Assembly (NCBI GenBank): GCA_020002185.1 | Contig: CM034544.1 | Span: forward strand, 33,549,066 to 33,613,065 | Source: Paraescarpia echinospica | Lineage: Eukaryota; Annelida; Polychaeta; Sabellida; Siboglinidae | DNA: 64,000 nt | Direction: 5' to 3' | In this document: positions 13,488 through 51,900 of the stretch, piece after piece | How the letters are laid out: each line of letters begins with the position of its first letter | How positions within the stretch are numbered: position 1 is the stretch's first letter | Notes under the pieces: generated by a model | Told to the model about the DNA's origin: nothing | The model's input: only the letters and a program-made list of their open reading frames with translations | Database searches by the model: none | Made by a program: the position numbers and the translations under genes

Positions 13488-13540
13488 CCTCGCCGCTGTG
13501 GCAGTCAGTGTAACGCGAAGCGAGCGGCAGACACGCGGAT

Positions 13541-16310: not shown

Positions 16311-16403
16311 GCGTGTAACCTGCCCACAGAGGTGAAGTCGGTGTCGGGACGTCTCGCAAGGGAGGTGCCGCCAATGGTTGACAATCTCGTGACAAGTGTT
16401 TGG

Positions 16404-16500: not shown

Positions 16501-16599
16501 GGTAAGACACAAGGCGATGTACAATGCAAGCTACTTCCGGGCGGTCCACTCCTGAACGCGCCTTCATGCTCCGGATAGGGACGTTCAATTCCTGTACAC

Positions 16600-29145: not shown

Positions 29146-29205
29146 GACAAGATGGCGGAGAAGAACGCCGTGAAGAACTGTCTCGCGTGGATCGCGGACG
29201 AACAG
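29146..29205 (+). CDS. plakin-B exon 2: start of spectrin-like repeat
   Basis: 60 nt, phase 0/0, acceptor TTGTGTGTTGTGCAG, donor GAACAG|GTGAGT. It encodes DKMAEKNAVKNCLAWIADEQ, the first helix of a plakin-domain spectrin repeat with the conserved Trp. It starts the chain of phase-consistent exons that continues to 40631. Confidence 0.75.
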
Positions 29206-30393
29206 GTGAGTGCATCCGTTAAACGGCAAGACGATTACTATCGGTTTCTTGTGGGTTTCTATAAATATTTTCGCATTCAATTTAGATGCAATTGAGGAAA
29301 TGTTAGGTAGAACGTTCTCACTAAGTGTCCGTTATTTGATCTCTAGGGTGTTGTGTAGTCTTTTTTAATGCACGGCAGACAATAATCTTCAATGCGTCAT
29401 GGGAAATATAAATATTTAAATAGTTTCACAGACAAAACAGATAAGGGACAAAATAAACTACCTAACACCACGGATCATATGTCACAGACCTTAACAAATC
29501 AGACACACGAACCTAGCAGAACACACCATAACATACAAACACAACGGACCAAATACTACAGAATGTAACAGACCAAACACAACGGACCAAACACTACGGA
29601 ATGCGGCAGACCAAACACAACGGACGAGACACCACAAACAGACATGCCGACTACCTCCGTTTGGTTGACCTAGATCTGTCGGTGTAACGTCACACCCGAC
29701 CGCCGGCGGCCTGTCGGGCGAAGAAATCGACTCCCGCGAACACTCCACTTGTGGCACTTCGTCTTTCTTCACCAGACTTTTTGGTGTGCAAATTCCACGG
29801 TCTATCTTGAGTGGCTCGTGTCCCGATTGTTTGCATATAGAATTCTACGTTATTTATAAGAGTCTTATAACTTGACGAAACAGTACAAGGTCACGTTTGG
29901 ATGATAGAATCAACTAAATTTGATAAGGATTCTATTAATAATTCTCAATAGTGGTAATTAGGTCTTTTTGTACAAAATACCTGAAGCACCAGGCGATGTT
30001 AATCACAAAAAAGATACTCTTTTATACCCTTTTACACACCAGAAAACACGTCACTAAATAACACTGTTAACGTAACGGAAAGTCGACATTCCGTGACAAA
30101 TTATGTGTTAATGTGCCGAGTACGTTGCGGGAACTGATCGATTATATGACACTGCCTTATATAACACACTGCTGCTTTGAATACCAATTACTCGTTTCTT
30201 TGGTGTGTTTTTGACCGCCGTTCGTGATGCTCCACACGAGTCTTGTGTTGAACACTGGCCACATTCCGGGAGTCAGACAGTCACGGTTGAGACGACATTA
30301 TGTCATTGTTATTTTCTCGGGTTTGCTCGATTTGTTTGGTTTCTGATACTGATTACGCCGTCTGGTGGTTAGCTCTGATGTTTTATTGCATAC

Positions 30394-30610
30394 TTAAAAT
30401 AGGCGAATGTGATACTTTCCTTGATGGTCTGACACTGTATGGTGTCGATGACTTGGCCGCGGAGATGCCTTGATCAAAGAAAGGAAACTTAAAACGTAAA
30501 GCCATATTAAACTAAGTACACGCATATTTCCAGTGACGATCAGCCGTATTTTGTGTGCGTGTGAATATAGTGTAAGACATATTGGACACCTCATTATATT
30601 CAAAGTGCTA
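30394..30610. other. Intron sequence, no gene recognised
   Basis: Together with the stretch 29206-30393 this is an intron between plakin-B exons 2 and 3. A short degenerate repeat of GACCAAACACAACGGACC lies at about 29560-29640. Confidence 0.6.
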
Positions 30611-30614
30611 TAAA

Positions 30615-30633
30615 GTGTGTGTGTGTGTGTGTA

Positions 30634-30685
<52 letters not shown>

Positions 30686-30695
30686 TGTGTGTGCC
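30615..30695. repeat. (GT)n microsatellite
   Basis: About 40 GT dinucleotides with a few substitutions, inside a plakin-B intron. Confidence 0.95.
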
Positions 30696-30972
30696 TGGTC
30701 GCATGCGTGCGTTGTGTGTGGAGGGGGCGCGGGTTACGTGCGTGCTGCGCACGTGACAATAATGTTTGTGTACGTCATAAGAATTTACACAAACTCATTA
30801 AGACTAAGGAGCCCACACATAGAAGCCCAGGCACTGCATTCCACGCGTACAGAGTTAAGAAAAGTGTAAACCAAATTTAGGGCCTACACCGAAGATACTA
30901 ACACTATTAAGTTGCCTTTATATTAACATCGAATGCCCCGTATATTGAGACTGTTGCCCCGTGGTCCTGTAG

Positions 30973-31104
30973 GCGGTGCACGAGACGGCCGACTATGGTA
31001 GTAACATGTCCGGCGTGCAGGCGGCGCTGCGAGAGCAACAACGGCGGGTGAAGTTGGTTCAAGACTTTAAGCCGGAAGCAGATAAAGTCGTACGATCGAC
31101 GGAG
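30973..31104 (+). CDS. plakin-B exon 3: spectrin-like repeat
   Basis: 132 nt, phase 0/0, acceptor GTCCTGTAG, donor ACGGAG|GTATCA. It encodes AVHETADYGSNMSGVQAALR and then VKLVQDFKPEADKVV. The order (W in the preceding exon, then a YGSN-SGV helix start and a Q-DF-PE helix) follows the third spectrin repeat of plakin domains. Role: structural rod segment of the plakin domain. Confidence 0.85.
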
Positions 31105-31526
31105 GTATCATATTTGTTAACTCGGCTTACTAGTGTGTTCGTGATATGATCGGTGTTTAACATTATTGGATGGATCTTTATTTTATTGAAGTGTAGATGA
31201 AAAAGAGGGCTCACGGATAACCAAAAGCAGCTTTTTTAATATTGTTACAATACGGAAAACAAAACAATATTTTAAAGTGTTACTATCACGCATATTAGCT
31301 GTTATCATAGTTGTTGCTATACAGAGAAATATGTCGTTAGACATCAATGGAATCTCAGGCTGTTTAATTAACATCCGAAGACACACGGTAATTGGCATCG
31401 CAATTCTTTCTTTTGCTTGGGTTATTGGGTTAGTATGTGTTGCGTATGTAACGGCAATAAAGTGTTAACGTTTACGTTTATTTATCTAACATTATATTTA
31501 CTTAACTGCTCTTTATGTTTTTTCAG

Positions 31527-31574
31527 AACAAGGAAGATGGCGCCACCGTCAATGCTGCATACGAAGGCCTCGTT
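31527..31574 (+). CDS. plakin-B exon 4: spectrin-like repeat
   Basis: 48 nt, phase 0/0, acceptor ATGTTTTTTCAG, donor CTCGTT|GTGAGT. It encodes NKEDGATVNAAYEGLV, the loop and third-helix start of the repeat begun in exons 2-3. The small size and frame preservation fit the chain. Confidence 0.75.
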
Positions 31575-31876
31575 GTGAGTATTACAGTGACGTCAGTAGA
31601 TTGAACGGGCGGCGGTAGGCAGGGTACATAAACATACTTGTTTAAACAGACTCGACCAGGCTGGGCACATTGTCTTTAAACACGCTCCAGTACACAGGAC
31701 TGCTTTTAAAATGACTGCGACAAACAGAACATAGACATATGTTCGTCCCTAGAGCGTTCTATAACAATTGCATGGAATTAAAAAGAGGATGACAGAAATA
31801 AAAAAAATAGGACAGGAAGCATAAAGAAAAGCTGGTTCCAAACCCAATGCACATATCCTAATGCCTTCTGTTATAG

Positions 31877-31948
31877 GAGATCGCCAACAAGAGGCTGGCC
31901 TGTCTCGAAGACATGGCCAAGATCGCCGGACTGGAGGATCTGTTTGGT
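31877..31948 (+). CDS. plakin-B exon 5: spectrin-like repeat
   Basis: 72 nt, phase 0/0, acceptor TTCTGTTATAG, donor TTTGGT|GTAAGT. It encodes EIANKRLACLEDMAKIAGLE followed by DLFG, a helix with heptad-like Leu/Ile spacing, in frame with its neighbours. Confidence 0.8.
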
Positions 31949-32504
31949 GTAAGTGTGCCTTTGCGTTCCACAGCGAAGATGTGGATCCAAACGGGACAGT
32001 GTCTTTGTTACCGTTGATCTACATTTGTTCACATCATCCACTGATGGCATTGTCGATCAGTTGTAGACCTATGTGTTCTATATGCGATATTTACTAAATG
32101 TGTTTAGTTTCCTTGAAGGTTGACGTGACACATTTTGTATAGCATCTACTTTTGACACAGCACTCAGGAGATTTTATTTGTGCGATATGTCGTCCGTCTC
32201 TCTAGTGTCTTCGCTGCTTCATCCTGTTGATTTACCAGCCGTTGATGTCTACAGGACGGGACGATCTTCGGTTTCATTTAGATGCCTTTTAGAATATTAA
32301 TGTATCTTCTTCAACGATTTCCATCAACCTTTGTATATATCTGGAATTTTTCTCTCAAGTTTCTCCCACGGGGTAGTGTTTGTTAAATGTGTTGTTTAAT
32401 TATATATTACATTATAATATTTAGTGCTTCCTTTTAATGGGCTATTGGTTCTTATAACATATTGTTACTGTTGTCGTGTACATGCACTTCAAATTCATTG
32501 ACAG

Positions 32505-32615
32505 ATGTTGTCGTCTTCGTTCGCCGAGCGTGCGACATCGTTGGTGACAGGGGAAGCTTGTGGTGACGTCACTCTCTCGAAGCGCGGCAACGAAGGAATG
32601 GCTAAGGCAGCACAG
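32505..32615 (+). CDS. plakin-B exon 6: spectrin-like repeat linker
   Basis: 111 nt, phase 0/0, acceptor TTCATTGACAG, donor GCACAG|GTTAGT. It encodes MLSSSFAERATSLVTGEACG and then DVTLSKRGNEGMAKAAQ. The ATG at its start is internal and is not proposed as an initiator. The middle is less helical than the neighbours and could be an inter-helix loop. Confidence 0.75.
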
Positions 32616-32947
32616 GTTAGTTGTAGTTGCGTCACATTTGTCCCTAATCCATAACCACTTCCGCGTAGGCCTATACTGAGACACCAGACAACATGGCGAA
32701 ATCACCTGCAATCAAAGTACTGTCGAGCTTTATTCGATTTTTCGCTCGTTTTGTTTGATAATTGATAATCATTCGGCAAAAAATAAAACCTACCAAGTAT
32801 CCACGATGACATGCTAACTCGTCTGTACACATTTTTTATTCAGTTGGTGAAATATTCTGATAAACTATTGCATTATTTGTGACCGGGTTCGATCAAAATT
32901 CGGTGAAAGCGGCGACCGTGATCCAGTTTCATATACTGTACTATACA

Positions 32948-33070
32948 GTTATTCACACTATCGCTGCTACCGGATACAGTTATTCACACTATCGCTGCTA
33001 CCGGATACAGTTATTCACACTATCGCTGCTACCGGATACAGTTATTCACACTATCGCTGCTACCGGATCT
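32948..33070. repeat. 32-bp tandem repeat, 4 copies
   Basis: Four almost identical units GTTATTCACACTATCGCTGC plus TACCGGATACA, in a plakin-B intron. Confidence 0.97.
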
Positions 33071-33376
33071 AACAACCGAGGTCCATTCGTTTCATTTTTA
33101 TTAAACCGACCTCGCATCTTAAATAAACTAGTCATACACTACCGAGTTGACCATATCGAACTTGATTCGGGATAAATCACTTATGTACTTAGTTAAAATT
33201 ATATACATTTACGGTGTCGACAAAAATCGTCTAAAGATATATATATATTTAATGAACTACTGAATACTGATTGATTGGGGTAGCATATTTATTTTAATTG
33301 ACTACTTAATGCATTGACGTTATGGCTAATTGATGGACTGAAGCATGTTCTGGACCAGTGGTGTTGTTTTCGACAG

Positions 33377-33472
33377 AACTGTATCCTGGCGGTGCGAACC
33401 AACTGGTCGTGGATGTCTAAACTCATCAAGTGCTCCGATCTCCACCTTCAGCACGTCTCCGAGTACCACCAG
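33377..33472 (+). CDS. plakin-B exon 7: spectrin-like repeat
   Basis: 96 nt, phase 0/0, acceptor TTTTCGACAG, donor CACCAG|GTAGAA. It encodes NCILAVRTNWSWMSKLIKCS followed by DLHLQHVSEYHQ. NWSWM-KLI is the first helix of a spectrin repeat with the core Trp. Confidence 0.85.
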
Positions 33473-33973
33473 GTAGAACACTCTCCCTTATCTTCCTAGC
33501 CCAAACTACCGATATTATCAGGCTCGTAGCGTGGTTGTTTTTGGAGGTGCGTTTTGGGTAATTGTCGCCGTGCCGAGGGGTAGTGTTGGTTCCCTCCAAG
33601 CGGAACTAATCCCCTCAATCAGAACGTTTTGCCTCAACTGGGGGATGGGTATGTAAGTAGTCACGTATCTTATCCCCATCAGTCTGCGGATTTGCAGTAT
33701 GCAACATTGATAGTTTTATTTCTCACCTTTGGGTTGCTCATATGCTAGCACCTTATCATCGCATTAGTGTTAGGTCAGCAAGAAACATATCATTCGGCTC
33801 TCATCTGAAGACTTATTACATTTTGTAACATTGCGTGTTCCGTATTCCTCTATATGTTGACAACTTTATCATTCTAATATATTTTAATAGTCTTTCATGT
33901 AAAGGCATGCTCTGTCATACATAATGTTGCGCAAAGCATAAGATAGTATATACGCCACAATGTGTTTGTCTAG

Positions 33974-34105
33974 TTCTTCCATGAGATTAAAGAATACCAA
34001 CATTGGATGCCCGTGGAGATGGCACGGGCACAAGACCTTGCTCAGTGCGCCCCTAGAGGATCTGGCGACAAAGATGACGCCTGCCGCATCCTTATCGAAT
34101 TGAAG
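33974..34105 (+). CDS. plakin-B exon 8: spectrin-like repeat
   Basis: 132 nt, phase 0/0, acceptor TTTGTCTAG, donor TTGAAG|GTATGC. It encodes FFHEIKEYQHWM and, at its end, DACRILIELK. F(F/Y)xEIKExxxW is the usual second-helix pattern in plakin-domain repeats just before the SH3-bearing repeat. Confidence 0.88.
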
Positions 34106-34371
34106 GTATGCCCATTCTAGGTTTACAACAGTCGTCGTCGTCTTTTATTTATACGAATTTTTTTTACTTTACACAGGTGTGATAATTTGAAAATGCAAAA
34201 ATACGTAAATTGAAATAGTAATACTAAATTGGCTAGTGTATCAACTGAGTGTGTCACTGCGTGCTAAACTGAAACATGTTCCGGAATGATAGTTTGTGTT
34301 CTTTACGACATATCTATCATCCTCAATGCTACCGTATACGGGACTGTTACAAGTGTGTTGTTAATCGCCAG

Positions 34372-34518
34372 GAGGCGCTGGCAGTCTTCCTGCACTGGCA
34401 GTCGAAGGTGGATGGTCTTATTGAGCGCAGCAAGAGCGTGGTCCCTGTCCATCTACGGACCGCCAAGTTGGACCATTGCCGACCCGTATCGTCGCTGTGC
34501 GACTACCAGACCAAACAG
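34372..34518 (+). CDS. plakin-B exon 9: repeat bearing the SH3 insert, first half of SH3
   Basis: 147 nt, phase 0/0, acceptor TTAATCGCCAG, donor AAACAG|GTGAGT. It encodes EALAVFLHWQSKVDGLIERS, then KSVVPVHLRTAKLDH and PVSSLCDYQTKQ. The LIERSKSVVP-L-R stretch followed by (A/S)LCDY is diagnostic of the plakin family, where an SH3 fold is inserted in the central spectrin repeat. ALCDY is the start of the SH3 strand (normally ALYDY in signalling SH3s). Plakin SH3s generally lack a usable proline-ligand groove, so a structural role is expected. Confidence 0.93.
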
Positions 34519-35064
34519 GTGAGTCACTTTGATACAACTTTAGACCACAATGAATCACAGTGGCAAAGACGTATTTAATTACCTGCACGTATATTGATTC
34601 AACGAATTAACTGATTTATTTTATTTCAACACAACACATTACGACATTAACTTAATTGATACGGTACATTATTGTTCACTGCAATTTGTTGAAAAATGGC
34701 AACATAAGTATAGTACTGTTGTTTACTATGTCGTTAGTTTAACTTATTATGACAAAAATTAATTTAACAACATGCCCACAGACCCTCAAGTGTTGGTATT
34801 TTTGACGAGTTTCGGGGGTGCAATAGGAGTTTTCCCCCCTAAACAACCCTGTTTGGATCCACTCCTGGTTTCAGTTGCTTTATTTCGAATAATTAATAAA
34901 TATTTTCTTGGTTGTTTACGGATATATTCATATATCTGTATGTTATTATCGAATAATATAACTACGTTCAGAAACATTGATCGGAAACGCCTAGGTCCTA
35001 CAAGAAGTTATGATTTGTTACACTAAGCTATGGAATGTTTTCAATACGTCACATCCGATTGCAG

Positions 35065-35127
35065 ATCAACATCCGGGAACAAGAGGAGCTGCAGTTGATT
35101 GACAACTCAAACCCTCAGACGTGGACA
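35065..35127 (+). CDS. plakin-B exon 10: SH3 middle
   Basis: 63 nt, phase 0/0, acceptor ATCCGATTGCAG, donor TGGACA|GTGAGT. It encodes INIREQEELQLIDNSNPQTW then T. This matches the plakin SH3 pattern I-(I/V)-KGDE-LLLDNS-----W, with the conserved DN and the SH3 Trp. Confidence 0.92.
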
Positions 35128-35368
35128 GTGAGTACAAAGTTACATCAGTGTATATATCTTAGGAATTTGTTGCTTCATTACTTTATTTCACGCACATCAC
35201 AATTCATCAGCAAAAATAAGGTCACGCAGCTTAGGTTTTGTAGATATTTTGTCATACTACCCCCAGAAAATACATATTTCTTAAAACCAAAGTGTGAAAA
35301 ATCAACTAATGCGCTTTGAATGAAATGCGGTGTTAATATGTTGACATTGTTGTTTTAATTTAACATAG

Positions 35369-35460
35369 GTTCGCAACATGCACAGTACGAAGGCCGAAGT
35401 ACCATCGACTATCTGTGTCATCCCTGGCCCTGACCCTGCCGCCGTGCAGGCCGCTATGAC
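35369..35460 (+). CDS. plakin-B exon 11: SH3 end (VPSxCFxIPPP-like motif)
   Basis: 92 nt, phase 0 in and phase 2 out, acceptor AATTTAACATAG, donor ATGAC|GTAAGT. It encodes VRNMHSTKAEVPSTICVIPG followed by PDPAAVQAAM. EVPSTICVIPGPDPAAVQ is the plakin VPS-CF-IPPPN-(D/E)A signature that ends the SH3 and re-enters the spectrin repeat. The whole 3' part of this exon with its donor is amplified in the tandem array that follows directly (35443-36215). Confidence 0.92.
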
Positions 35461-36215
35461 GTAAGTACTGTCGACTGTCTATGTCATTCCTTTACTCCAC
35501 CGCCGTGCAGGCCGCTATGACGTAAGTACTGTCGACTGTCTAAGTAATTCCTTTACTCCACCGCCGTGCAGGCCGCTATGACATAAGTACTGTCGATTGT
35601 CTGTGTCATTCCTTTACACCGCCGCCGTACAGGCCGCTATGACGTGTAAGTACTGTCAATTATCTGTGTCATTCATTTACTCCGCCGCCGTACTGGCCGC
35701 TACGACGTGTACGTACTTTCGACTATCTGTGTCATCCCCTGAATCCGCCGCCGTACAGGCCGCTATGACGTGTAAGTACTGTCGATTATCTGTGTCATCC
35801 TCTGAATCCGCCGCCGTACAGGTCGCTATGACGTGTAAGTACTGTCGATTATCTGTGTCATCCCCTGAATCCGCCGCCGCGCAGGCCGCTATGACGTGTA
35901 AGTACTGTCGACTATCTGTGTCATTCCTTTACTCCGCCGCCGTACAGGCCGCTATGACGTGTACGTACTTTCGACTATCTGTGCCATCCCCTGAATCCGC
36001 CGCCGTACAGGCCGCTATGACGTGTAAGTACTGTCGACTATCTGTGTCATCCCCTGAATCCGCCGCCGTACAGGCCGCTATGACGGGTACGTACTTTCGA
36101 CTATCTGTGTCATCCCCTGAATCCGCCGCCGTACAGGCCGCTATGACGTGTAAGTACTGTCGACTATCTGTGTCATCCCGTCATAGCCGCCGTGCAGGCC
36201 GCTATGACGCATGGA
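35443..36215. repeat. 63-bp tandem array made of exon end plus 5' splice site
   Basis: About 12 copies, unit roughly 60-63 bp, consisting of the last bases of the preceding exon (GCCGTGCAGGCCGCTATGAC), the donor region (GTAAGTACTGTCGAC or GTGTAAGTACTGTCG) and TATCTGTGTCAT, itself a piece of the exon. The first two copies after the exon are closest to the exon. Later copies settle on GTGTAAGTAC/GTGTACGTAC. With 63-bp units a frame stays open (AAVQAAMTCKYCRLSVSSPE), but this is a by-product. The last copy is at about 36185-36215. Confidence 0.95.
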
Positions 36216-36665
36216 CGACGTGTTTGGAAGTCACAATGAAGCACGTGCACCGCAGTGACAATGACGGTGATAATTAATGTATCATTTCGTTAATGTTGGT
36301 TAAAAATGATATGATATGTTGGTGATTATTGTTATGGTTATATAGCGACAACAGCGATGGAATATCCAAAGAAATAAAAAAAATTCAATTCGGAGAGAAC
36401 TTGAAGAAACATGTAGATCGTATGGAATCTTGTTTTATGTACTAACAACAAGACCACGTTTGTCGAGACAGCTTGTGTTCTGTGTACAATGGACAACAGA
36501 TAATCATAGAAGATACACACATTGCATGTTGATGCTAGTTGTATTGGATGCTGAACTGCGCCTGGTCTTCCGCACGTATTCCGTACGGGTGTCGACGGTA
36601 AACACCAACATCTACTTGTCACTAGGCCTACTAATCATTAAGTGAAGTCTAATTATGAATTCGAG

Positions 36666-36816
36666 AAATGTAAATGTTTTCCAGCAGAAGGTTTATCTCT
36701 GTGTTGACAGTCTTCGCCTGCAGTTGCTAGGAATGTGGACCATTACAATCAAGCGAGTCGGTCAGTCCATCTTCTACACTCTTTTGCAAATCTTCCGGGA
36801 TTGGAATGCGCAAGAG
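36666..36816 (+). CDS. plakin-B exon 12: spectrin-like repeat after SH3
   Basis: 151 nt, donor CAAGAG|GTGAGT. It encodes a segment with VYLCVDSLRLQLLGMWTITI and IFYTLLQIFRDWNAQE. It corresponds to the ALW-QLH-D-KSLL-W segment after the SH3 in plectin and dystonin. The exon must start in phase 2; the acceptor TTCGAG at 36660-36665 satisfies this and adds NVNVFQQ, exactly the seven residues expected by comparison with plectin. The stronger-looking acceptor TTTTCCAG at 36684 would break the frame. The ORF is clear but the 5' boundary is provisional. Confidence 0.8.
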
Positions 36817-36980
36817 GTGAGTCACGTGATGTACATCGTAGGCGTCAAACTATGGAGGGATGGAGTTGGGGGGTGAGCTCCTCAAATATTTCTATCAGGG
36901 GGGGTGCAAGAGTAGCTGAATATAAGTGGACTGTACTTTATAATATTATAACGGCCACTTGTTTTACGCATAATTATTAT

Positions 36981-37335
36981 TATGTTACACGATACACTAT
37001 TACATGATGCATTATTACATGATTCACTATTACATGATGCATTATTACATGATTCACTATTACATGATACGTTATTACACGATAAACTGTTATATAATGC
37101 ACTATTACATAATACACTATTACATGATGCATTATTACATGATTCGCTATTACATGATGCATTATTACATGATTCACTATTAAATGATACGTTATTACAC
37201 GATAAACTGTTATATAATGCACTATTACATGATACACTATTACATGATGCATCATTACATTATTCACTATTACATGATACGTTATTACACGATATACTGT
37301 GATATAATGCACTATTACATGATACACTATTACAG
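36981..37335. repeat. 15-bp tandem repeat next to a plakin exon
   Basis: About 23 units of CACTATTACATGATG/CATTATTACATGATT with ACGTTATTACACGATAAACTG variants. It ends 24 bp before the acceptor of exon 13. LLHDALLHDS-type frames reflect the 5-codon period and are not coding. Confidence 0.95.
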
Positions 37336-37358
37336 ATAACACGTCTTTCTTTTCACAG

Positions 37359-37604
37359 AGGCGCCAACTAGCGGCATTGTCTGACTCCGATAAGACGCAG
37401 ATCCTGAAAGTGGTCGACGCCATCGAGTCGAGTCTACGCACTCACTGGTCCGAGTACGCCGGATTCAAGAAACTGAAGGGGCGATTTGACCTCCTTAGGA
37501 AGATCCTGGCGGAAAGAGGAGACCCGTCCTACGCTGACTCGGCCTTCGGGAGACAATTCGTGTCGTCGGTGGGGCGGCTGGGTGACGTGTCCAACAGCTA
37601 CCAG
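37359..37604 (+). CDS. plakin-B exon 13: spectrin-like repeat
   Basis: 246 nt (82 codons, phase 0/0), acceptor TTTCTTTTCACAG, donor TACCAG|GTGAGC. It contains LAALSDSDKTQILKVVDAIE, RTHWSEYAGFKKL and LLRKILAERGDPSYADSAFG. The exon is strongly GC-rich and helical. It belongs to the spectrin repeats following the SH3 repeat in the plakin domain. Its C-terminal 40 residues align with the plakin-A exon at 2293-2464. Confidence 0.9.
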
Positions 37605-38029
37605 GTGAGCTACTGTCTGTATACCTCCTGGCTAAGATGCTCTTGTGAGAATGTAGTATTGAGTTATCAGTGCTGTCTCTCAGGTTGTGGGTCTGAAGCT
37701 GAAACAGCAAGTCTCGATAGATACCGCGAGTATCGGTCGTAGTTGTTAGTAGTAGTTTCCAGCACTCGGCAACGTACTATTGACTGTATAGTCTTTGTAT
37801 ATTTTGGTTACAATGTTATAAGGTCTCATTCAACTAGTCAGCCTTTTACAGAACATTATCGCCAAGCCGACCTTTCTATGCTGGCACTGAGGGTGGTCAC
37901 TACCAGGGTGCTTTTCGTCGTCAGTGATTCTTCTACGTCCCAAATTTAGACTTTGATTGTGTCCCGTCTAGACCCAGAATCGATATACCAATACTTATCA
38001 GTCACACACTATTGTTATTCGAAGCTCAA

Positions 38030-38136
<107 letters not shown>

Positions 38137-38293
38137 TATATGCCACTACGTATCTTAATCATATAACACAGATACCAAATACAGTAGAACAGATAACACA
38201 TATTGTACAGAGATTACAGATAAAACAGACAACACATAACACATATACAAGGCAGATAACACATAATCTATAGCACAAACTGCACATTTAATG

Positions 38294-38632
38294 TAGCGCC
38301 GTGTTGCAGTGACTAGAGCTTCCGATTCTTTTTAACGAGAGAACCCATGTTCGAATTCTGTGCTGCGGTGTCGAACCTTGGGCAAGTTCGTTCACTCTAC
38401 GTTGCTCCTGTTCATTCAGCTGTATGAATGAGTACCTGGCTATAGACAGTGGTAGATATGTCTGTACGAATTGTCTTCGCGCAATAATTGCAGCGTGGTT
38501 GAATGTTTCCCAGAGAAGTCGAGATTGTGTTCGATTGAACAGGTCTGCCAGGGAGTAACATGTAAAGCGCTTTGAGCAGTCCTAAGGACTGGATACTGCG
38601 CTGTATAAGAACTTCCCTTTTTCATTTGATTA
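38294..38632 (+). mobile_element. tRNA-derived SINE, near full length
   Basis: Head GTGTTGCAGTGACTAGAGCT, B-box-like GTTCGAATTCTGTGC, body GAATGAGTACCTGGCTATAG and GAACAGGTCTGCCAGGGAGT, tail AAGCGCTTTGAGCAGTCC and ATACTGCGCTGTATAAGAAC. Same family as the copies at 26463 and 53130; sense orientation in the plakin-B intron. Confidence 0.85.
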
Positions 38633-38777
38633 ACATGAACATGTTTTGGCACGCGGCCACCGTCCGCACAGTGTCAATCGGCGAGCTAAATTATTGGCAA
38701 CGTTCGAGTAGATTTTATGCACGGAAAGCGAGTAAAACCACGTAGATGCCAAGTAAAATAGTGTATATTCTTACAGA

Positions 38778-39388
38778 GTGTCTTTTCGTCATGTCATAGC
38801 CCCTTCAAGGGAAACATGCTTATAAATAAGGCTAGTAACTGTCTTTTCGTCATGTCATAGCCCCTTCAAGGGAAACATGCTTATAAATAAGGCTAGCAAC
38901 TGTCTTTTCGTCATGTCATAGCCCCTTCAAAGGAAACATGCTTATAAATAAGGCTAGTAACTGTCTTTTCGTCATGTCATAGCCCCTTCAAGGGAAACAT
39001 GCTTATAAATAAGGCTAGTAACTGTCTTTTCGTCATGTCATAGCCCCTTCAAAGGAAACATGCTTATAAATAAGGCTAGTAACTGTCTTTTCGTCATGTC
39101 ATAGCCCCTTCAAAGGAAACATGCTTATAAATAAGGCTAGTAACTGTCTTTTCGTCATGTCATAGCCCCTTCAAAGGAAACATGCTTATAAATAAGGCTA
39201 GTAACTGTCTTTTCGTCATGTCATAGCCCCTTCAAGGGAAACATGCTTATAAATAAGGCTAGTAACTGTCTTTTCGTCATGTCATAGCCCCTTCAAAGGA
39301 AACATGCTTATAAATAAGGCTAGTAACTGTCTTTTCGTCATGTCATAGCCCCTTCAAAGGAAACATGCTTATAAATAAGGCTAGTAAC
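38778..39388. repeat. 61-bp tandem repeat, 10 copies
   Basis: Units of CTGTCTTTTCGTCATGTCAT, AGCCCCTTCAA(G/A)GGAAACAT and GCTTATAAATAAGGCTAG. Nearly identical copies imply recent homogenisation. It is in the intron before exon 14 and is not made from an exon boundary that I can see. Confidence 0.97.
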
Positions 39389-39669
39389 TAGCACAATACT
39401 AGTTCCACGTGATCCAGTAGTTGAAGTAGTAGTGTCATTGAAAGTGTGGCACAAATGCTGCGGTACAATGTGCTCGTTTCCTACTTGTGCACAACCAGAT
39501 ATTTCCCAAAGACAATTGTATCGCCATTTTTGACGTAGATCTGCACATATACCCACTAGATGAGGTATGAGCCTCGTTACACTGTAATCAGCGCCATAAC
39601 TGGTCATTTCACCTTACCTTATCCTTCGTTAATGGTCATTTTGTGAGCTGAGGACATATCAGAAAGACA

Positions 39670-39735
39670 CAAACTGTTATAAAGTGCTCTGAACAGATCG
39701 AAGGACTGCAACGGCGCTGTGCGGTTTTGTAAAAT
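39670..39735 (+). mobile_element. Possible SINE tail remnant
   Basis: AAAGTGCTCTGAACAGATCG, then GGCGCTGTGCGG, resembles the diverged SINE 3' tail (AAGCGCTTTGAGCAGTCC...GCGCTATATAAG). It directly precedes the acceptor of exon 14. Weak. Confidence 0.25.
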
Positions 39736-39760
39736 TAATATTTCATGTGGATATTTGCAG

Positions 39761-39882
39761 GAGTTTTGGTCGTACTGGGATACGTACCGAGTGGTCTGCG
39801 AGACGTCAAGACAACCAGAGTTTCTCCTTCTGCTCGAGAGATGGCAGCAGCTGAAGCTTGTCGAAATACTGCCCCTTCTCAA
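39761..39882 (+). CDS. plakin-B exon 14: spectrin-like helix
   Basis: 122 nt, phase 0 in and phase 2 out, acceptor GATATTTGCAG, donor TCAA|GTGAGT. It encodes EFWSYWDTYRVVCETSRQPE and FLLLLERWQQLKLVEILPLL. Helical, Trp/Tyr-rich, in frame with exons 13 and 15. The plakin-A exon at 5371-5486 is its counterpart (F-x-x-aromatic-W-x-x-YR-x-V). Confidence 0.85.
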
Positions 39883-40214
39883 GTGAGTGTCCGCGTTACA
39901 TGGCCGTCTTGTCTGCTAATTAATTGTCGCATTCTTTTATTACACTGACAGCGCATACGTATTATAAAAACCTATTAACACCCAACGCATTTGAACATCA
40001 ACGAATCTGATTCGTGACGGGAGAAGTCAGTATATAGGTCTGCTAATGACGTTCTTAGTATTCATATTTTGGTACTGTATGCGTGTGTGTGTGCGTGCGT
40101 GCGTGCGTGCGTGCGTGCGTGTGTGTATATGGCTCTGTCGCCGCTGTAACAACAGTACTAGTTAACAACGGTAATCTATACGTTATTGTAGTTTATCAGA
40201 AACGGCACGTCATC

Positions 40215-40380
40215 ATCATTGATGTAGCAGCTGCAGCAGCAGCAGCAGAAGCAGTAGCAGAAGCAGCAGCAGCAGTTGTTGTCGTATTTGTTGTTGTTGT
40301 TATTATTGTTGTTGCTGTTGTTGTTGTTATTATTGTTGCTGTTGTTCTTGTTATTGTTGTTGTTGTTGTTGTTGTTAACA
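40215..40380. repeat. (GCA)n/(GTT)n triplet tract
   Basis: GCAGCAGCAG then GTTGTTGTTATT runs ending 18 bp before exon 15; it supplies the T-rich context of that acceptor. Confidence 0.95.
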
Positions 40381-40398
40381 AAGTGATTGTTATTCCAG

Positions 40399-40631
40399 GA
40401 AGTGGAACATTGATCTTCACTTTGACGAATCGGAATTTCTCGCGTTCGACTCGGTCGATTCCGAAATGCAGGAAGAAACGGTAGAACAAGTGACGGAAGT
40501 TATGCAAGAAGCCATCGTTGCGAAGACGTCCGAGTCAGTGACAATGGCTGTTGAGACAACGAAGGAGAACTCTTCTTCGGAACATATGACAACCATGGAA
40601 CAAGAGGAGAAGAAGACGTTTGTCATCACAG
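40399..40631 (+). CDS. plakin-B exon 15: acidic linker, branch-point exon for two C-termini
   Basis: 233 nt, phase 2 in and phase 1 out, acceptor TTATTCCAG, donor ATCACAG|GTGAGT. It encodes KWNIDLHFDESEFLAFDSVD, then EMQEETVEQVTEVMQEAIV, an acidic Thr/Ser/Glu linker and KKTFVIT at the end. The phase-1 end fits two downstream exons: the plectin-repeat exon at 41602 (G+CC gives Ala, KKTFVIT-AVLDPR) and the KASH exon at 45364 (G+AC gives Asp, KKTFVIT-DDEDVD). Both joins keep the frame open. The donor is followed by an array of donor copies (40615-40985). Confidence 0.9.
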
Positions 40632-40985
40632 GTGAGTAGCTGTCATCACAAGTGAGTAGTTGTCATGACTGATGAGTAGTTGTTATCATTAGTGAGTAGT
40701 TGTCGTCATTGGTGAGTATTTGTAATCACTGGTGAGTAGTTGTCATCCCTGGTGAGTATTTGTCATCACTGGTGAGTATTTGTTATCACTGATGAGTAAT
40801 TCTTATCATTAGTGAGTAGTTGTAATCTTCGGTGAGTACTTGTCATCACTGGTGAGTAGTTGTCATCACAGGTAAATAGTTGTAGTAGTTGTCATCACTG
40901 GAGCAAATTTGTGATGACATGTGAGTAGTTGTCATCACTTGAGAACAAGTGTCACCATTGGTGCGTATTTGTCATTATAGTGAGT
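40615..40985. repeat. 20-bp tandem array of the exon 15 donor
   Basis: About 16 diverged units of TTGTCATCACTGGTGAGTAG. The first is the real exon end plus donor (TTTGTCATCACAG|GTGAGTAG). About a dozen copies keep GTGAGTA intact. The array is therefore a string of close copies of the exon-intron junction. Confidence 0.92.
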
Positions 40986-41320
40986 AATATAACAACGCGG
41001 TCTTACAGCGCGGCTATCCGCGTAGAACATGCAAGGTGCTCCTGACACCTACGTCATATTAATGGAAGTGTTTTGGCAGCTGCTAAGATACAGCGCCTGT
41101 ATGGGGGCTGTAAATCAAGACCGTTTGGCTCCGTGAGACCACGACAGGTTTTCTAAATTGTTCTTCTATCTTTCAAGTATTTGTCATCACTTGTTATCCT
41201 GAGTCGTCTTGATTTAGTCTCTTTAATACAGAATACTATAATGCATAGAGTTTGATAAAATAAAGTTATTATGCGATCTAAAGACACACAAACACTCATA
41301 TTTATAAACGCATAGGCCGT

Positions 41321-41328
41321 ACACACAC

Positions 41329-41380
<52 letters not shown>
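41321..41380. repeat. (CA)n microsatellite
   Basis: About 28 CA dinucleotides in the intron between exons 15 and 16. Confidence 0.95.
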
Positions 41381-41382
<2 letters not shown>

Positions 41383-41601
41383 ACGCACGCATGCACGCAC
41401 ACAATACCAAATCAAAGATATGAATGTGCACGTTGTACAAAGGTACTACTATTAACATTTTTCACCAATCTCCATATTTCGGAGGTAAACGTGTCATTGG
41501 AATTGACAACATCTGTAATGTCAGAACACTGTTGGTCTTCCTTCAAATGAAGTCCCGTTGTTGTTGTTGGTGGTGTTATCACTGGTTGATGGTTGTTGCA
41601 G

Positions 41602-41750
41602 CCGTGTTGGACCCCCGCAACAACGAGGAGGTGTCGATGCAGCAAGCCGTGATGTTGGGCATCATCGACAGTCAGAAAGGTCTCTACGTCAACCCAACTA
41701 CGGGAGAGAAGATTCCCATCCCTGTCGCCATGAACGCCGGCAAGATCAAG
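41602..41750 (+). CDS. plakin-B exon 16: plectin repeat 1
   Basis: 149 nt, phase 1 in and phase 0 out, acceptor GATGGTTGTTGCAG, donor ATCAAG|GTGCAC. It encodes VLDPRNNEEVSMQQAVMLGI, then IDSQKGLYVNPTTGEKIPIP and VAMNAGKIK, a canonical plectin repeat (LDP, A---GII(D), GLY-NP-TGE--PI--AM--G-I). Its closest relative in the window is plectin repeat 1 of plakin-A. Presumed role: filament or junction binding by the C-terminal plakin-repeat domain. Confidence 0.95.
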
Positions 41751-42176
41751 GTGCACTTTTTAAAATATATTAATATTCTTTTTAGAATACTAATGTTATT
41801 ATATTGATTCTATGCTATTTATGAAACGAATTATGATATTAACTTTAGAATAGTTATATATGTATTTAGAAAATTTATCATAATGATTATATGATACTGT
41901 TTTGATAAGGATCTTACTGACTTTATGATGATTACGATATTAAATTTAGAACTATTCTGACATCGATATTATGATATTTATGATAATGATCTAAAATAAT
42001 GGTTTATAATAGTTAATTTTACAATTTTAAAATCCCCACTCTACTCCACCGACTCAGTGGCTTTTTGGCACCACGAGCATCTTATTTGGCGGATACCGGC
42101 GCTATACAATATTATTATTATTATTAGTAGTAGTAGTAGTTATTATTAGTAGTATTATTATTATTATTATTATAAG
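41751..42176. other. Short AT-rich intron with retroposon tail
   Basis: Mostly AT-rich. GGCGCTATACAATATTATTATT at about 42095-42118 looks like the tail of a LINE-mobilised retroposon. The ATT/AGT run that follows ends in TATAAG, which is the acceptor of exon 17. Confidence 0.5.
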
Positions 42177-42806
42177 GTTGAGTTCACGTCGACAAAGAAG
42201 ACGGAGGAGAAGCGGCGAGACATTGGCCTCATCACGATCAAGATGTTGCGCGAGTCTCGGCCTTACACCGTCAAGGCGGTCATCGACACGAGGACGAACC
42301 AGGAGGTAACGGTGGACGAGGCAATCGAGCGCGGCATTCTCGACCAGAAGAACGGCCTGTACCGCAACGTGCAGACCGGCAGCGAGATGACCATCGGCGA
42401 CGCCCTCGAGCAGGGTCTGCTGATCGTAGAGTTCGACAAGAACGCGCCTGTCACCGACCCCAAGTCGGAGACAGTTACCTACGCCATCCACCATGTCGTC
42501 GACGTCAAGCTGAAGACGAAGGTGACGTTCACGGAAGCCGTGCGTCTTGGCCTGCTCGATACCCACACCGGGGCGTTCCACAACACGAAGACGGGCGAGA
42601 ATCTGTACGTGGGCGACGCCATCAAGCGTGGCTTCATCAAGGCGACATTCGTCAAAGACCCGTCATCGCTCAACATCGACGCAGAGAACAAAGTCTTCAT
42701 CGACAAGGTGGCGATCATCAGACAGAAGCTCGTGAAGCCGATGGTAGCGTTGTCGGCTCTACGCAAGGCCGCCGAGGCGTCCGGTAAGAAGTCGGGTGGA
42801 AAGTAG
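42177..42806 (+). CDS. plakin-B exon 17: plectin repeats 2 and 3, stop (plectin-type C-terminus)
   Basis: 630 nt, phase 0 from ATTATAAG to a TAG at 42804-42806. It encodes VEFTSTKKTEEKRRDIGLIT, repeat 2 (YTVKAVIDTRTNQEVTVDEA, GILDQKNGLYRNVQTGSEMT, DALEQGLLIVEF), repeat 3 (VVDVKLKTKVTFTEAVRLGL, GAFHNTKTGENLYVGDAIKR, GFIKATFVKD) and a tail ending ALSALRKAAEASGKKSGGK. With exons 1-16 the predicted protein is about 842 residues. No coiled-coil rod, spectrin-repeat rod, EF-hand or GAR domain follows. The basic GKKSGGK end recalls the Gly/Ser/Arg tails of other plakins. Confidence 0.95.
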   Translation, partial: VEFTSTKKTEEKRRDIGLITIKMLRESRPYTVKAVIDTRTNQEVTVDEAIERGILDQKNGLYRNVQTGSEMTIGDALEQGLLIVEFDKNAPVTDPKSETVTYAIHHVVDVKLKTKVTFTEAVRLGLLDTHTGAFHNTKTGENLYVGDAIKRGFIKATFVKDPSSLNIDAENKVFIDKVAIIRQKLVKPMVALSALRKAAEASGKKSGGK

Positions 42807-43620
42807 TCCTATCAGCCCCTGCCATTTGGAGCTAGAGACAGTCCACGCGACCGGCCGCACACTTCCGCTTTGCGTGTTGCACACACAGAACTTGTCGCCA
42901 AACTGTCCTGGTGCTTCGCAAAACACGTATCGTTGTTCGACAGTGCTATCCGTGGCGTCTTGCGGAGAACTGTATTTTGGAAATATTGCGAACATTTACA
43001 CTGAAAACCTTCCGAGAGTAATGACTTTTGGTGATAACTTGTTTGTACTGAAATTTTGTTATGGGAATTAGAAATTTTGCTGACATCAACATTACTACAG
43101 TGTGACTGGTTGCCTTTGGGCGCAGGCGCAAGCGCACAAAGCGGAAATGACGTGCCGGGCGAGAAATGTCTCACTTTATTTTAATTTCGCTTGCCTAATG
43201 TAATTTCATATAGGGAACCTTCGTCGAAAAAAAACCAAGGTGGTATATAATTATTTCAGTAGACCTATAACGTGAATGTAGTGATATTTAGAAAACAACT
43301 GCGTTATTTAACGTCAACGGTGGTGTGATGTAACTACGAACAGTAGTGTGCAAACGCCCTTGCTGACGCTCGTGAATTTTGACGTTGCCATAGTCGATGG
43401 AAAGGCTTTACATAGTAGGCTTGTAGTTGATTTTAATAATTTAAATTAATATAGAGTATATATCTGTAATTAGTTTTGTCCGATTACCGAGAATATATTG
43501 AAGCGCACGATATAATTGTATTTAATTGTAATACACACATTCGTATGTCTTGAAATATATTCTTGCCGTAGTTGAAACTGTGTTGAGAAGTTTGTATTCT
43601 GCTGGCTGCTGTCTGGTAAC
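42807..43620. other. 3' flank of plectin-type end; no further gene
   Basis: Presumed 3' UTR grading into AT-rich DNA. I see no canonical AATAAA in the first 800 bp, so the cleavage signal is either a variant or not identified. Confidence 0.5.
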
Positions 43621-43629
43621 AATTAATAC

Positions 43630-45350
43630 ACGTGATGTATATCAATAGAAAGCTGTGTACCATGTCATCCAATAGTAGTTCGTGTGCCATATCCCCCAGT
43701 AGTAGACCATGTACCGTGTCATCCAATAGTAGTTCGTGTCCCATATCCCCCAGTAGTAGAATATGTATCTTGTCATCCAATAGTAGTTCGTCTCCCATAT
43801 CCCCCAGTAGTAGACCATGTACCGTGTCATCCAATATTAGTTCGTGTCCCATATCTCCCAGTAGTAGACCATGTACCGTGTCATCCAATAGTAGTTCGTG
43901 TCCCATATCCCCCAGTAGTAGACCATGTACCTTGTCATCCAATAGTCGTTCGTGTCCCATATCCCCCAGTAGTAGACCATGTACCGTGTCATCCAATAGT
44001 AGTTCGTGTCCCATATCCCCCAGTAGTAGACCATGTACCTTGTCATCCAATAGTCGTTCGTGTCTCATATCCCCCAGTAGTAGACCATGTACCGTGTCAT
44101 CCAATAGTAGTTCGTGTCCCATATCTCCCAGTAGTAGACCATGTACCGTGTCATCCAATAGTAGTTCGTGTCCCATATCCCCCAGTAGTAGACCATGTAC
44201 CTTGTCATCCAATAGTCGTTCGTGTCCCATATCCCCCAGTAGTAGACCATGTACCGTGTCATCCAATAGTATTTCGTGTCCCATATCTACCAGTAGTAGA
44301 CCACGTACCTTGTCATCCAACAGTCGTTCGTGTCCCATATCCCCCAGTAGTAGACCATGTACCGTGTCATCCAATAGTAGTTCGTGTCCCATATCCCCCA
44401 GTAGTAGACCATGTACCGTGTCATCCAATAGAAGACGTGTCCAATAATAGACCGTGAAACGTATATCGTCCAATATTAAACCGAGCACCAATTCATCAAA
44501 TTGCAGACCAATAACTATGTAGGCTAATATTAGACCGTATGGTTTGTCCGCCAATAGTATACCATGTACCATGTCATCCAGTATTATACCTTGTACCATG
44601 TCCATCAATAGCATACCGTGTACCGTACTCTCCAACAATAGACCATAGGCAATGTCCTCCAATAGTAGACCGTGTTCCACGTCATCCAATAATATACCAT
44701 GTACCATGTCCTCCAATAATAGACCATGTACCATGTCCTCCAATAATAGACCATGTACCATGTCATCCAATAATAGACCATATACCATGTCATCAAATAG
44801 TAGACTGTGTGCCATGTCCTCCAACAGTAGACCGTGTACCATGTCCTCCAATAGTAGACCGTGTACCATGTCCTCCAGTAGTAGACAGTGTATCATTTTC
44901 TCCAATAGTAGATCGTGTACCATGTCCTCCAATAGTAGACCGTGAACCATGTCCTCCAATAGTAGATCGTGTACCATGTCCTCCAATAGTAGACCGTGAC
45001 CCATGTCCTCCAATAGTAGACCGTGTACCATGTCCTCCAATAATAGACCGTGACCCATGTCCTCCAATAGTAGATCGTGTACCATGTCCTCCAATAGTAG
45101 ACCGTGACCCATGTCCTCCAATAGTAGATCGTGTACCATGTCCTCCAATAGTAGACCGTGACCCATGTCCTCCAATAGTAGATCGTGTACCATGTCCTCC
45201 AATAGTAGACCGTGTACCATGTCCTTTAATAGTAGACCGTGTACCATGTCCTCCAATAGTAGATCGTATACCATGTCCTCCAATAGTAGATCGTGTACCA
45301 TATCCTCCAATAGTAGATCGTGTACCATGTGTTCTGTGTACCATGTGTTC
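43630..45350. repeat. 27-bp/54-bp minisatellite, about 60 units
   Basis: About 1.7 kb of ATGTCCTCCAATAGTAGACC plus GTGTACC and relatives. In the left third two diverged units alternate to give a 54-bp higher-order repeat (CATCCAATAGTAGTTCGTGT, CCCATATCCCCCAGTAGTAG). The middle (44460-44640) is the most degenerate. It ends in CCATGTGTTCTGTGTACC and CCATGTGTTCTGCTCG, the sequence directly before the KASH exon acceptor. Period 27 keeps frames open on both strands (up to 653 codons on the minus strand) without coding evidence. Confidence 0.95.
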
Positions 45351-45363
45351 TGCTCGTCCCCAG

Positions 45364-45632
45364 ACGACGAAGACGTCGACACGGCGGCGCTGCTGCAGTA
45401 CTCCATGGCTGAATTGGTGGCGCTCTCTGGCGATAGTGACGACATGCGGGCGGCGTTCGTGAGTCGCGTGTATCGTTCCGCGGTACCGCTTCACGTCCTC
45501 ATGCTGCTTTTGCTCGGCCTCGCGTGCCTGCTGCCCTCTGGCGACGACGAGTTCAGCTGCTTCCTCGCCAACAACTTCGAGAGGTCCCTGGCCGTCATGA
45601 TCAGGTACAATGACGGCTCCCCGCCAGTCTGA
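45364..45632 (+). CDS. KASH-domain terminal exon (alternative 3' exon of plakin-B)
   Basis: 269 nt after TGCTCGTCCCCAG, phase 1 in, to TGA at 45630-45632. It encodes an acidic start (DDEDVDTAALLQYSMAELVA), then the KASH domain: FVSRVYRSAVPLHVLMLLLL, GLACLLPSGDDEF, SCFLANNFERSLAVMIRYND and GSPPV at the C-terminus. This has the order of nesprin KASH domains: basic juxtamembrane helix, one membrane segment, a lumenal Cys 23 residues before the last residue (same spacing as the SUN-disulfide Cys of nesprins), ANNF-RS, the RY-NG-like turn and a PP-X end. KASH peptides bind SUN proteins in the perinuclear space and tether the cytoskeleton to the nucleus. No other upstream + strand gene can supply its N-terminus except plakin-B. 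Phase 1 fits exon 15 (40631) and does not fit exon 16 (phase 0). The joined product would be about 672 aa: plakin domain, linker, KASH. An independent KASH gene with a start inside the array is the alternative, considered unlikely. Confidence 0.92.
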
Positions 45633-50371: not shown

Positions 50372-50785
50372 ATGGATATGCCTATACGGTTTGGTGGATC
50401 AGCTTCTTTCCTGTCGAACTTTTACTCGTGTCGACTTGAAGCGTACGGTCGGGTGTTTAAGTCTGTTGAACATGCTTTTCAGTATAGAAAGGCGATGTTT
50501 GATGAAGACGACGAATGCACGGAAAGTATCAACGAACCAAGGTACGTGGCGAAATGGAGAAGTAGAGCCGTAAGGAAAACGAGAAGAGCATCAGAGTGGG
50601 ATGCTATCCGTATCGACTGTATGCATAACTTATTGATGACAAAGTTCACAACCTCGAAACAGTTGAGAGAGGTCTTGCTGGCTACTGGAAAAGTTGAACT
50701 GATGGAGAGGATACCGTCGAAAGAAGCTTCTTGGGGGGTCGGCTACGGTGGTAAAAAGGTCGAAACACGCTCGAAAAAATATTGA
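50372..50785 (+). CDS. NADAR (YbiA/DUF1768-like) domain protein
   Basis: An intact frame of 137 codons from the first in-frame ATG (an in-frame TAG lies at 50336-50338) to TGA. Motifs in order: FGGSASFLSNFYSCRLEAYG near the N-terminus, VFKSVEHAFQYRKAMF, a mid-region RYVAKWRSRAVRK, WDAIRIDCMHNLLMTKFTTS, LREVLLATGKVELMERIPSK and EASWGVGYGGKK. These are the defining blocks of NADAR domains: G-LSNFY, (F/Y)-SVEH-(F/Y)Q--KA, W---R---M---L--KF, L--LL-TG---L-E-(S/T)P-D--WG-G. Family members hydrolyse N-glycosidic bonds in riboflavin-pathway intermediates, and some reverse ADP-ribosylation of guanine bases. The length equals a single domain. The usual Asp in the P-D--WG block is a Glu-Ala here (SKEASWG), which may affect activity. 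AATAAA follows 24 nt after the stop. A splice acceptor CTAG at 50338 could alternatively add an upstream exon. Confidence 0.85.
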   Translation: MDMPIRFGGSASFLSNFYSCRLEAYGRVFKSVEHAFQYRKAMFDEDDECTESINEPRYVAKWRSRAVRKTRRASEWDAIRIDCMHNLLMTKFTTSKQLREVLLATGKVELMERIPSKEASWGVGYGGKKVETRSKKY

Positions 50786-51654: not shown

Positions 51655-51900
51655 ACCGTGCCAGCTAGATCGTTTGAATTGTGTCTCCATTCAGGTTACA
51701 ATAAGGTGAAGTTACGCCGACGAGGCAGCGACATTTTTTTCGACAGCTCCCTCCTCGTCTTCCGCTAGCACAATTTAGCCAGCCGCAAGCCAGCGGAGAA
51801 ATTGAAGAAGTACGGAAAATACGACGGCGAGGCGGCGAAATTTTTTCAACATTTTCGACACCATTTGGTTCAGCCGCCAGTGGAGGATTTGTGCCCTCTT
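51655..51900. repeat. ~220-bp direct repeat, copy 1
   Basis: TTCAGGTTACAATAAGGTGA, TTTTTCGACAGCTCCCTCC and GGTTCAGCCGCCAGTGGAGG are repeated in copy 2 at 52405-52625. Probably a fragment of a dispersed repeat; orientation direct. Confidence 0.75.

What the first reader, a model, noticed from the sequence alone, without database searches (positions are those of the whole stretch)
40399..45632. Plakin gene with an alternative KASH terminal exon
The exon at 45364-45632 encodes a complete KASH domain (membrane segment, lumenal Cys at the nesprin spacing, ANNF-RS, PP-V end). The only upstream coding exons on this strand belong to plakin-B. Exon 15 ends in phase 1; the plectin exon 16 and the KASH exon both start in phase 1, while exon 16 ends in phase 0 and cannot splice to KASH. 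This predicts mutually exclusive C-termini: three plectin repeats (about 842 aa) or a nuclear-envelope anchor (about 672 aa). It would be a one-gene switch between filament or junction linkage and LINC-complex linkage, with a plakin domain but no rod, unlike giant nesprins.
Basis: partly seen in the sequence, partly recalled or inferred. Interest (0 to 1): 0.92.

Follow-up and report, generated by a model that had tools for sequence, protein, structure and literature searches.

The report
KASH exon behind a plakin gene
An animal genome carries, just behind a gene for a cell-skeleton linker protein (a plakin), a conserved exon for a nuclear-membrane anchor (KASH) that is not the one of its nesprin gene, which suggests a plakin that fastens itself directly to the nucleus; the splice that would join them is still unproven.

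Summary
Window 45364-45632 (+) encodes a complete KASH domain (PF10541, E 2e-21, positions 1-58 of 58) in a terminal exon that starts in phase 1. Three unnamed relatives keep it at 87-97% identity, with conservation starting at the splice acceptor. In the window's own 1.08-Gb genome two KASH exons score: this one (C14) and one on C8 that lies at the end of a run of spectrin-repeat exons, the nesprin. So this is a second, separate KASH exon. The nearest recognised coding sequence upstream on its strand is plakin-B exon 17, whose stop is 2.6 kb before it; a tandem paralogue, plakin-A, lies further up. Mutually exclusive ends are one of two options. No transcript was available, and linkage in relatives could not be shown. 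Most likely: a KASH-plakin tying the cytoskeleton to SUN proteins in a single chain.

The parts
29146..40631 (+). plakin-B exons 1-15 (29146-29205, 30973-31104, 31527-31574, 31877-31948, 32505-32615, 33377-33472, 33974-34105, 34372-34518, 35065-35127, 35369-35460, 36346-36412, 36685-36816, 37359-37604, 39761-39882, 40399-40631): plakin domain with SH3_10; exon 15 ends in phase 1. Exon 1 is preceded by an acceptor, so further 5' exons are possible; exon 11 (36346-36412) is placed mainly by phase
   Evidence: gene model; SH3_10 E 9.4e-18; PDB desmoplakin 3r6n E 4e-17 and plectin 3pe0 E 6.6e-16
40631..40632 (+). exon-15 donor CAG|GTGAGT, phase 1: candidate 5' partner of the KASH exon
   Evidence: ties with exons 1 and 8 for the best donor score of 16 (12.32, leave-one-out)
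41602..41750 (+). plakin-B exon 16 (start of plectin-repeat region; phase 1 in, phase 0 out)
42177..42806 (+). plakin-B exon 17: plectin repeats and plectin-type stop
   Evidence: Plectin PF00681 E 9.4e-11 (frame 42153-42803); 33 homologues at E<=0.001 among 434 candidates
   Evidence: best-scoring of 41 GT in exon 17; scores above 9 of 16 modelled donors
43657..45363 (+). 27-bp-unit minisatellite from the plectin 3' region to the KASH acceptor
45364..45632 (+). KASH terminal exon, phase-1 start, stop at 45630-45632
   Evidence: PF10541; PDB nesprin-1/2/3 KASH peptides; relatives P0001-P0003
6651..9434 (+). 3' part of tandem paralogue plakin-A (plectin repeats, stop at 9432-9434); no KASH exon of its own in the window; segments of its plakin domain lie upstream of the window
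50486..50773 (+). NADAR-domain segment, taken as part of the next gene downstream
   Evidence: PF08719 E 1.4e-13

Best explanation
The KASH exon is an alternative last exon of plakin-B. Some transcripts splice past the plectin-type ending into it, either from exon 15 (phase 1; plakin domain + KASH, 673 aa) or from the phase-1 donor inside exon 17 (plakin domain + plectin repeats + KASH, 925 aa). The tail inserts into the outer nuclear membrane, its 31-residue lumenal peptide binds SUN proteins, and the plakin domain (with or without plectin repeats) reaches cytoskeletal partners. It would do in one chain what vertebrates do with nesprin-3 bound to plectin. Shown: the domains, the exon, its phase, its conservation, its being distinct from the nesprin KASH, and SUN-domain exons in the same genome. 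Inferred: the splice, the choice of donor, membrane topology, SUN binding and the cytoskeletal partner.
For: Complete KASH. Conservation begins at the acceptor in 3 of 3 relatives, and the residue before it is P, S, P, P (window, P0001-P0003), each of which can be read as an in-frame CA|G acceptor; this argues for joining to an upstream coding exon, and P0003 has Leu where a stand-alone product could start at Met. Genome-wide PF10541 gives 2 matches, and the other lies at the end of a run of spectrin-repeat exons on C8. On the + strand plakin-A and plakin-B are the only genes I recognised between C14:33489066 and the KASH exon, besides a retroelement-like frame and unassigned segments. Of the plectin-repeat loci found in the genome (C14 plakin-A and plakin-B, C2, C6, C13), only plakin-B has a KASH exon beside it. 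Two phase-1 donors in plakin-B fit. SUN-domain exons lie at two loci.
Against: No transcript. The contig lengths listed for the KASH relatives (1,545; 1,247,037; 147,693) match none of the 3 closest plectin-exon relatives (1,153,615; 218,361; 137,903), so linkage in relatives is not shown; the lists look incomplete (P0004: 3 members, 1 contig). The KASH acceptor scores below 13 of 17 modelled acceptors, and 13% of all AG in the window score as high. No AATAAA or ATTAAA within 1 kb after the KASH stop, only variants such as TATAAA at 45844 and 45857. The plectin-type end is itself conserved (the 89 and 84% relatives end GGK*), so a form without KASH is expected anyway.
Confidence: 0.74

Rival explanations
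1. The KASH exon belongs to a separate small KASH gene whose 5' exons are short or poorly coding-like and were missed, lying between plakin-B exons or just upstream.
For: Codon scans miss short exons; about 850 bp of unarrayed sequence (42807-43656) lies between the plectin stop and the minisatellite; linkage to plakin in relatives could not be shown.
Against: No segment above the scan thresholds on the + strand in 42807-45344 (low-complexity segments left out); in plakin-B's introns only 29699-29740 and repeats reached 14. Conservation up to the acceptor calls for an upstream coding exon, and two fitting plakin donors are present.
Confidence: 0.18
2. It is the last exon of the genome's nesprin gene, separated from the spectrin repeats by a long intron that holds the plakins, or joined to plakin-B by misassembly in the minisatellite.
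For: KASH sequence is nesprin-like; a minisatellite lies at the junction.
Against: A spectrin-repeat run with its own KASH exon is on C8. In the 60 kb upstream on C14 I recognised plakin-A and a retroelement-like frame, no spectrin repeats (three of its frames scanned). The array is 1.7 kb with distinct degenerate copies in its middle, on a 57.8-Mb contig.
Confidence: 0.04
3. A decayed duplicate of the nesprin KASH exon with no transcript.
For: No RNA evidence either way.
Against: Open frame, full-length domain, 87-97% identity over the whole exon in three relatives while sequence before the acceptor diverged; intron phase differs from the C8 exon (2 against 1) and identity to it is 53%, so it is not a fresh exon copy.
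Confidence: 0.04

Closest known systems
Nesprin-3alpha bound to plectin or dystonin (vertebrates)
   Same: Links the outer nuclear membrane to plakins through a KASH protein (passages of PMC3352338, and PMC2924321).
   Different: There the KASH protein and the plakin are two polypeptides; here one gene would carry both.
Giant nesprins (SYNE1/2, MSP300, ANC-1; names partly recalled)
   Same: Same kind of KASH tail; this genome has one on C8, 53% identical over 59 aa.
   Different: Spectrin-repeat rod; no plakin SH3 or plectin repeat in the four C8 exons scanned; different contig and intron phase.
Dystonin-a2
   Same: A plakin isoform held at perinuclear membranes by a transmembrane segment (PMC3352338 passages).
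   Different: Its transmembrane segment is N-terminal, and nothing in those passages calls it a KASH domain.
Spectraplakins VAB-10A/B, Shot, MACF1-4
   Same: Isoforms with different domain content from one gene; plectin repeats in some (passages of PMC8012552; the VAB-10/Shot detail is recalled).
   Different: As recalled, the alternatives there are plectin repeats, rods and actin-binding ends, not a membrane anchor. The likely spectraplakin here is on C2, with 710-, 2909- and 2359-aa plectin-repeat frames.

Membership tests
KASH-domain protein | C-terminal KASH domain: single membrane span plus about 30 lumenal residues | tested here: met
   PF10541 1-58/58; hydropathy
KASH-domain protein | Lumenal Cys at the nesprin position | tested here: met
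   Same column as nesprin-1, -2 and -3 peptides 4dxr, 4dxs, 6wme
KASH-domain protein | C-terminal PPPX (motif recalled) | tested here: inconclusive
   End is SPPV, two of three prolines kept; the C8 nesprin KASH of the same genome ends TPPF
KASH-domain protein | Cytoplasmic part on the same polypeptide | tested here: inconclusive
   Phase-compatible donors in plakin-B; no RNA
KASH-domain protein | Binds SUN proteins at the outer nuclear membrane | not testable with these tools
   SUN-domain exons present in the genome
Plakin | Plakin domain with embedded SH3 | tested here: met
   SH3_10 E 9.4e-18; desmoplakin and plectin plakin domains
Plakin | Plectin repeats (most, not all, members) | tested here: met
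   PF00681 E 3.4e-16 on the joined 925-aa form. The predicted fold of exon 17 gave no significant PDB match
Spectraplakin | Actin-binding CH domains, spectrin rod, EF-hand/GAS2 | tested here: not met
   None recognised around plakin-B in the window; short or distant exons not excluded
Nesprin | Spectrin-repeat rod joined to KASH | tested here: not met
   No spectrin repeats recognised on C14 near the exon; they are on C8. The genome-wide spectrin-family search did not complete

The most novel reading that the evidence does not exclude
Plakin-B makes a nuclear-envelope plakin: a new class of KASH protein in which plakin domain, and possibly plectin repeats, sit on one chain with a SUN-binding tail. 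It would be a one-gene version of the nesprin-3-plectin bridge, switched by splicing between a membrane-free plectin ending and a KASH ending, and kept alongside an ordinary nesprin.
Probability: 0.72. Interest if true: 0.86.

Novelty: new variant of a known kind. Interest (0 to 1): 0.72.

Why it matters
In the passages I saw, LINC complexes reach plakins and intermediate filaments through a separate KASH protein. A plakin with its own KASH tail would show that the bridge can be one molecule, add an architecture to the KASH proteins, and provide a natural system in which splicing decides whether a cytolinker grips the nucleus. It is directly testable by RT-PCR across three exons.

Tried and rejected
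Rejected: nesprin tail exon (a nesprin with its own KASH is on C8); KASH-only product starting at the Met of LLQYSMAEL (Leu in P0003, and conservation extends upstream of it to the acceptor); recent copy of the nesprin KASH exon (53% identity, phase 2 against 1); a second KASH near plakin-A (one convincing match in the window).

Led nowhere: KASH search among proteins of about 509-1618 aa, 556 candidates, none at E<=0.01; as ordinary nesprins of that size were not found either, the database seems poor in animals, and absence from other animals cannot be concluded. Relatives in viral contigs and genome contigs: none. Fold of exon 17 (mean pLDDT 70.6) against PDB: no match with E<=0.001, desmoplakin and periplakin repeats only among non-significant rows. 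Rfam and tRNA scans empty. An idea left open: 18 of 28 complete plectin-exon homologues end in G[KQ]-stop, which could hide a donor overlapping the stop. Only protein letters were held for them; Q endings fit poorly; and of the genome's other plakins whose end I could read, plakin-A (HHK-stop) and C13 (NGL-stop) have no such donor.

Literature: searches of the held library showed me no plakin with a KASH tail; I read only passages of six papers (PMC9145010, PMC2924321, PMC3352338, PMC5605089, PMC12581424, PMC8012552) and listings of the rest. Subscription papers are mostly not in that library.
Full report
WHAT WAS CLAIMED. A KASH exon at 45364-45632 lies 3' of a plakin gene (plakin-B), and phases predict two mutually exclusive C-termini, plectin repeats or KASH.

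THE EXON IS REAL. The open frame ending at 45632 matches Pfam KASH over its full length (1-58/58, E 2.1e-21, 76.4 bits against a cut-off of 23). Its lumenal tail matches the nesprin-1, -2 and -3 KASH peptides in the PDB (best E 2.2e-6), with 16 of 31 residues identical to the nesprin-1 peptide 4dxr and the cysteine in the same column. It ends SPPV instead of PPPX; the genome's other KASH ends TPPF. In the alignment similarity starts at the acceptor and runs to the stop. Upstream of it the letters differ, but P0001 and P0002 show a 9-residue period (my reading), which fits the 27-bp minisatellite seen here; in P0003 this is less clear. The residue just before the conserved block is P, S, P, P (window, P0001-P0003), each of which can be read as an in-frame ...CA|G acceptor in phase 1. 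So this looks like an exon that begins inside a protein, under strong purifying selection.

IT IS NOT THE NESPRIN'S. The window lies at C14:33549066-33613065 of a 1.084-Gb genome in 3111 contigs. A genome-wide search with PF10541 scored 57 of 57 first-look candidates and kept 2: the window's exon (78.9 bits) and C8:40396282-40396455, minus strand (85 bits). About 28 kb upstream of the C8 exon (in L003-L005) carries a series of coding segments on the same strand. Of the four given to Pfam, two pass the Spectrin cut-off and two match Spectrin or the nesprin-1 spectrin model below cut-off. I take C8 to be the nesprin gene with its own KASH; that these exons are one gene is inferred from order and strand. 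Its KASH exon begins in phase 2, the window's in phase 1, and the two peptides are 53% identical over 59 residues. A KASH domain split between exons, or a very diverged one, could escape this six-frame search; the same kind of search with the Plectin family listed only two places on C2 and missed the window's plectin exons, so the count of two is a lower bound.

NEIGHBOURHOOD. A codon-score scan trained on plakin-B (so it favours genes like it) finds on the + strand of the window plakin-A, plakin-B, the KASH exon, repeat-derived segments and six small unassigned ones (2290-2454, 13459-13572, 16391-16519, 23524-23625, 29699-29740, 51778-51837) above its threshold of 14. A retrained scan adds 50486-50773, a NADAR domain (E 1.4e-13). 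Of 20 frames of the window given to Pfam, none gave a spectrin repeat or CH domain at E<=0.1; two (plakin-A) gave Plectin and one NADAR. 60 kb upstream of the window on C14 holds segments that I assign to plakin-A's plakin domain (one is 27% identical to plakin-B, E 2.5e-5) and, further up, a frame that looks to me like a retroelement ORF and an unassigned segment at C14:33509786-33510037 with codon score 27; no spectrin or CH exon was recognised by eye in the scan's output, and the 3 of its frames given to Pfam had no match. The nearest recognised upstream coding sequence on this strand is plakin-B exon 17, whose stop is 2.56 kb before the KASH exon. Plectin-repeat exons occur at C14 (plakin-A and -B), C2, C6 and C13 (28 matches); only plakin-B has a KASH exon beside it.

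GENE MODEL. Plakin-B has 15 exons before the plectin repeats, encoding a plakin domain with SH3_10 (E 9.4e-18) related by sequence to desmoplakin and plectin. Exon 15 ends in phase 1. Homologues suggest that this intron position is old: in P0004, P0007, P0014 and P0027 the frame upstream of V-x-D-P is unconserved but ends in Gly, as a phase-1 acceptor followed by G would give, while P0032 (FVITG) and P0028 (FQITA) read on into conserved sequence.

Exon 17 holds CCG|GTAAGA at 42783|42784 in phase 1. With a donor matrix made from plakin-B's own 16 donors it scores 6.81, best of the 41 GT in exon 17 and above 9 of the 16 modelled donors (those scored leave-one-out); 224 of 9727 GT in the window, both strands, score as high. 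Spliced to KASH it gives a 925-aa protein with plakin domain, plectin repeats and KASH. The exon-15 donor is stronger (12.32). Both are open, and the two are not exclusive. The plectin-type end is itself conserved (P0004 and P0005 end GGK*), so a membrane-free form is expected in any case.

HOW IT WOULD WORK. Inferred from established KASH biology: the tail is inserted in the outer nuclear membrane, the lumenal peptide is held by SUN proteins (SUN-domain exons occur at C5 and C10), and the plakin part faces the cytoplasm. The exon-17 form could hold filaments through plectin repeats; the exon-15 form would bring only the plakin domain. In vertebrates the same connection uses nesprin-3 and a plakin as two proteins (passages of PMC3352338).

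RESULTS AGAINST. No RNA was available. Contig lengths listed for the three KASH relatives and for the three closest plectin-exon relatives do not coincide; the lists look incomplete, so this is not proof of separation, but linkage in relatives is unshown. The KASH acceptor is below 13 of 17 modelled acceptors, and 901 of 6818 AG in the window score as high. No AATAAA or ATTAAA follows the KASH stop within 1 kb; the plectin stop has none before 44475 either.

VERDICT. Observation confirmed; interpretation partly supported. A second, conserved, non-nesprin KASH exon sits in frame-compatible position behind a plakin. Probability that it is spliced to plakin-B about 0.74, with the donor (exon 15 or exon 17) undecided. 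In eight searches of the held library I saw no plakin with a KASH tail, from listings and passages only.

Noticed in passing
40620-40883: The exon-15 end and donor (TTGTCATCAC-G|GTGAGTAG) is amplified about 13 times as a 20-bp minisatellite, leaving a row of donor-like sites in the intron.
   Followed up: partly
35397-36209: The end of exon 10 with its donor and an AG before it is repeated 13 times in 63-bp units, each like a tiny exon between AG and GT.
   Followed up: partly
43657-45363: 27-bp minisatellite filling the stretch up to the KASH acceptor; the translated upstream parts of relatives P0001 and P0002 show the same 9-residue period, P0003 less clearly.
   Followed up: partly
L020 and L021 (C2:17596753-17607909): A likely spectraplakin locus with plectin-repeat open frames of 710 and 2909 aa, and a third of 2359 aa further on.
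   Followed up: no
P0004-P0031 (homologues of exon 17): 18 of 28 complete plectin-exon homologues end in G[KQ]-stop after tails of very different length; either a functional C-terminus or a donor overlapping the stop.
   Followed up: partly
   Followed up: no
L010:721-972 (C14:33509786-33510037, +): A segment with codon score 27 and no Pfam match, upstream of plakin-A.
   Followed up: partly
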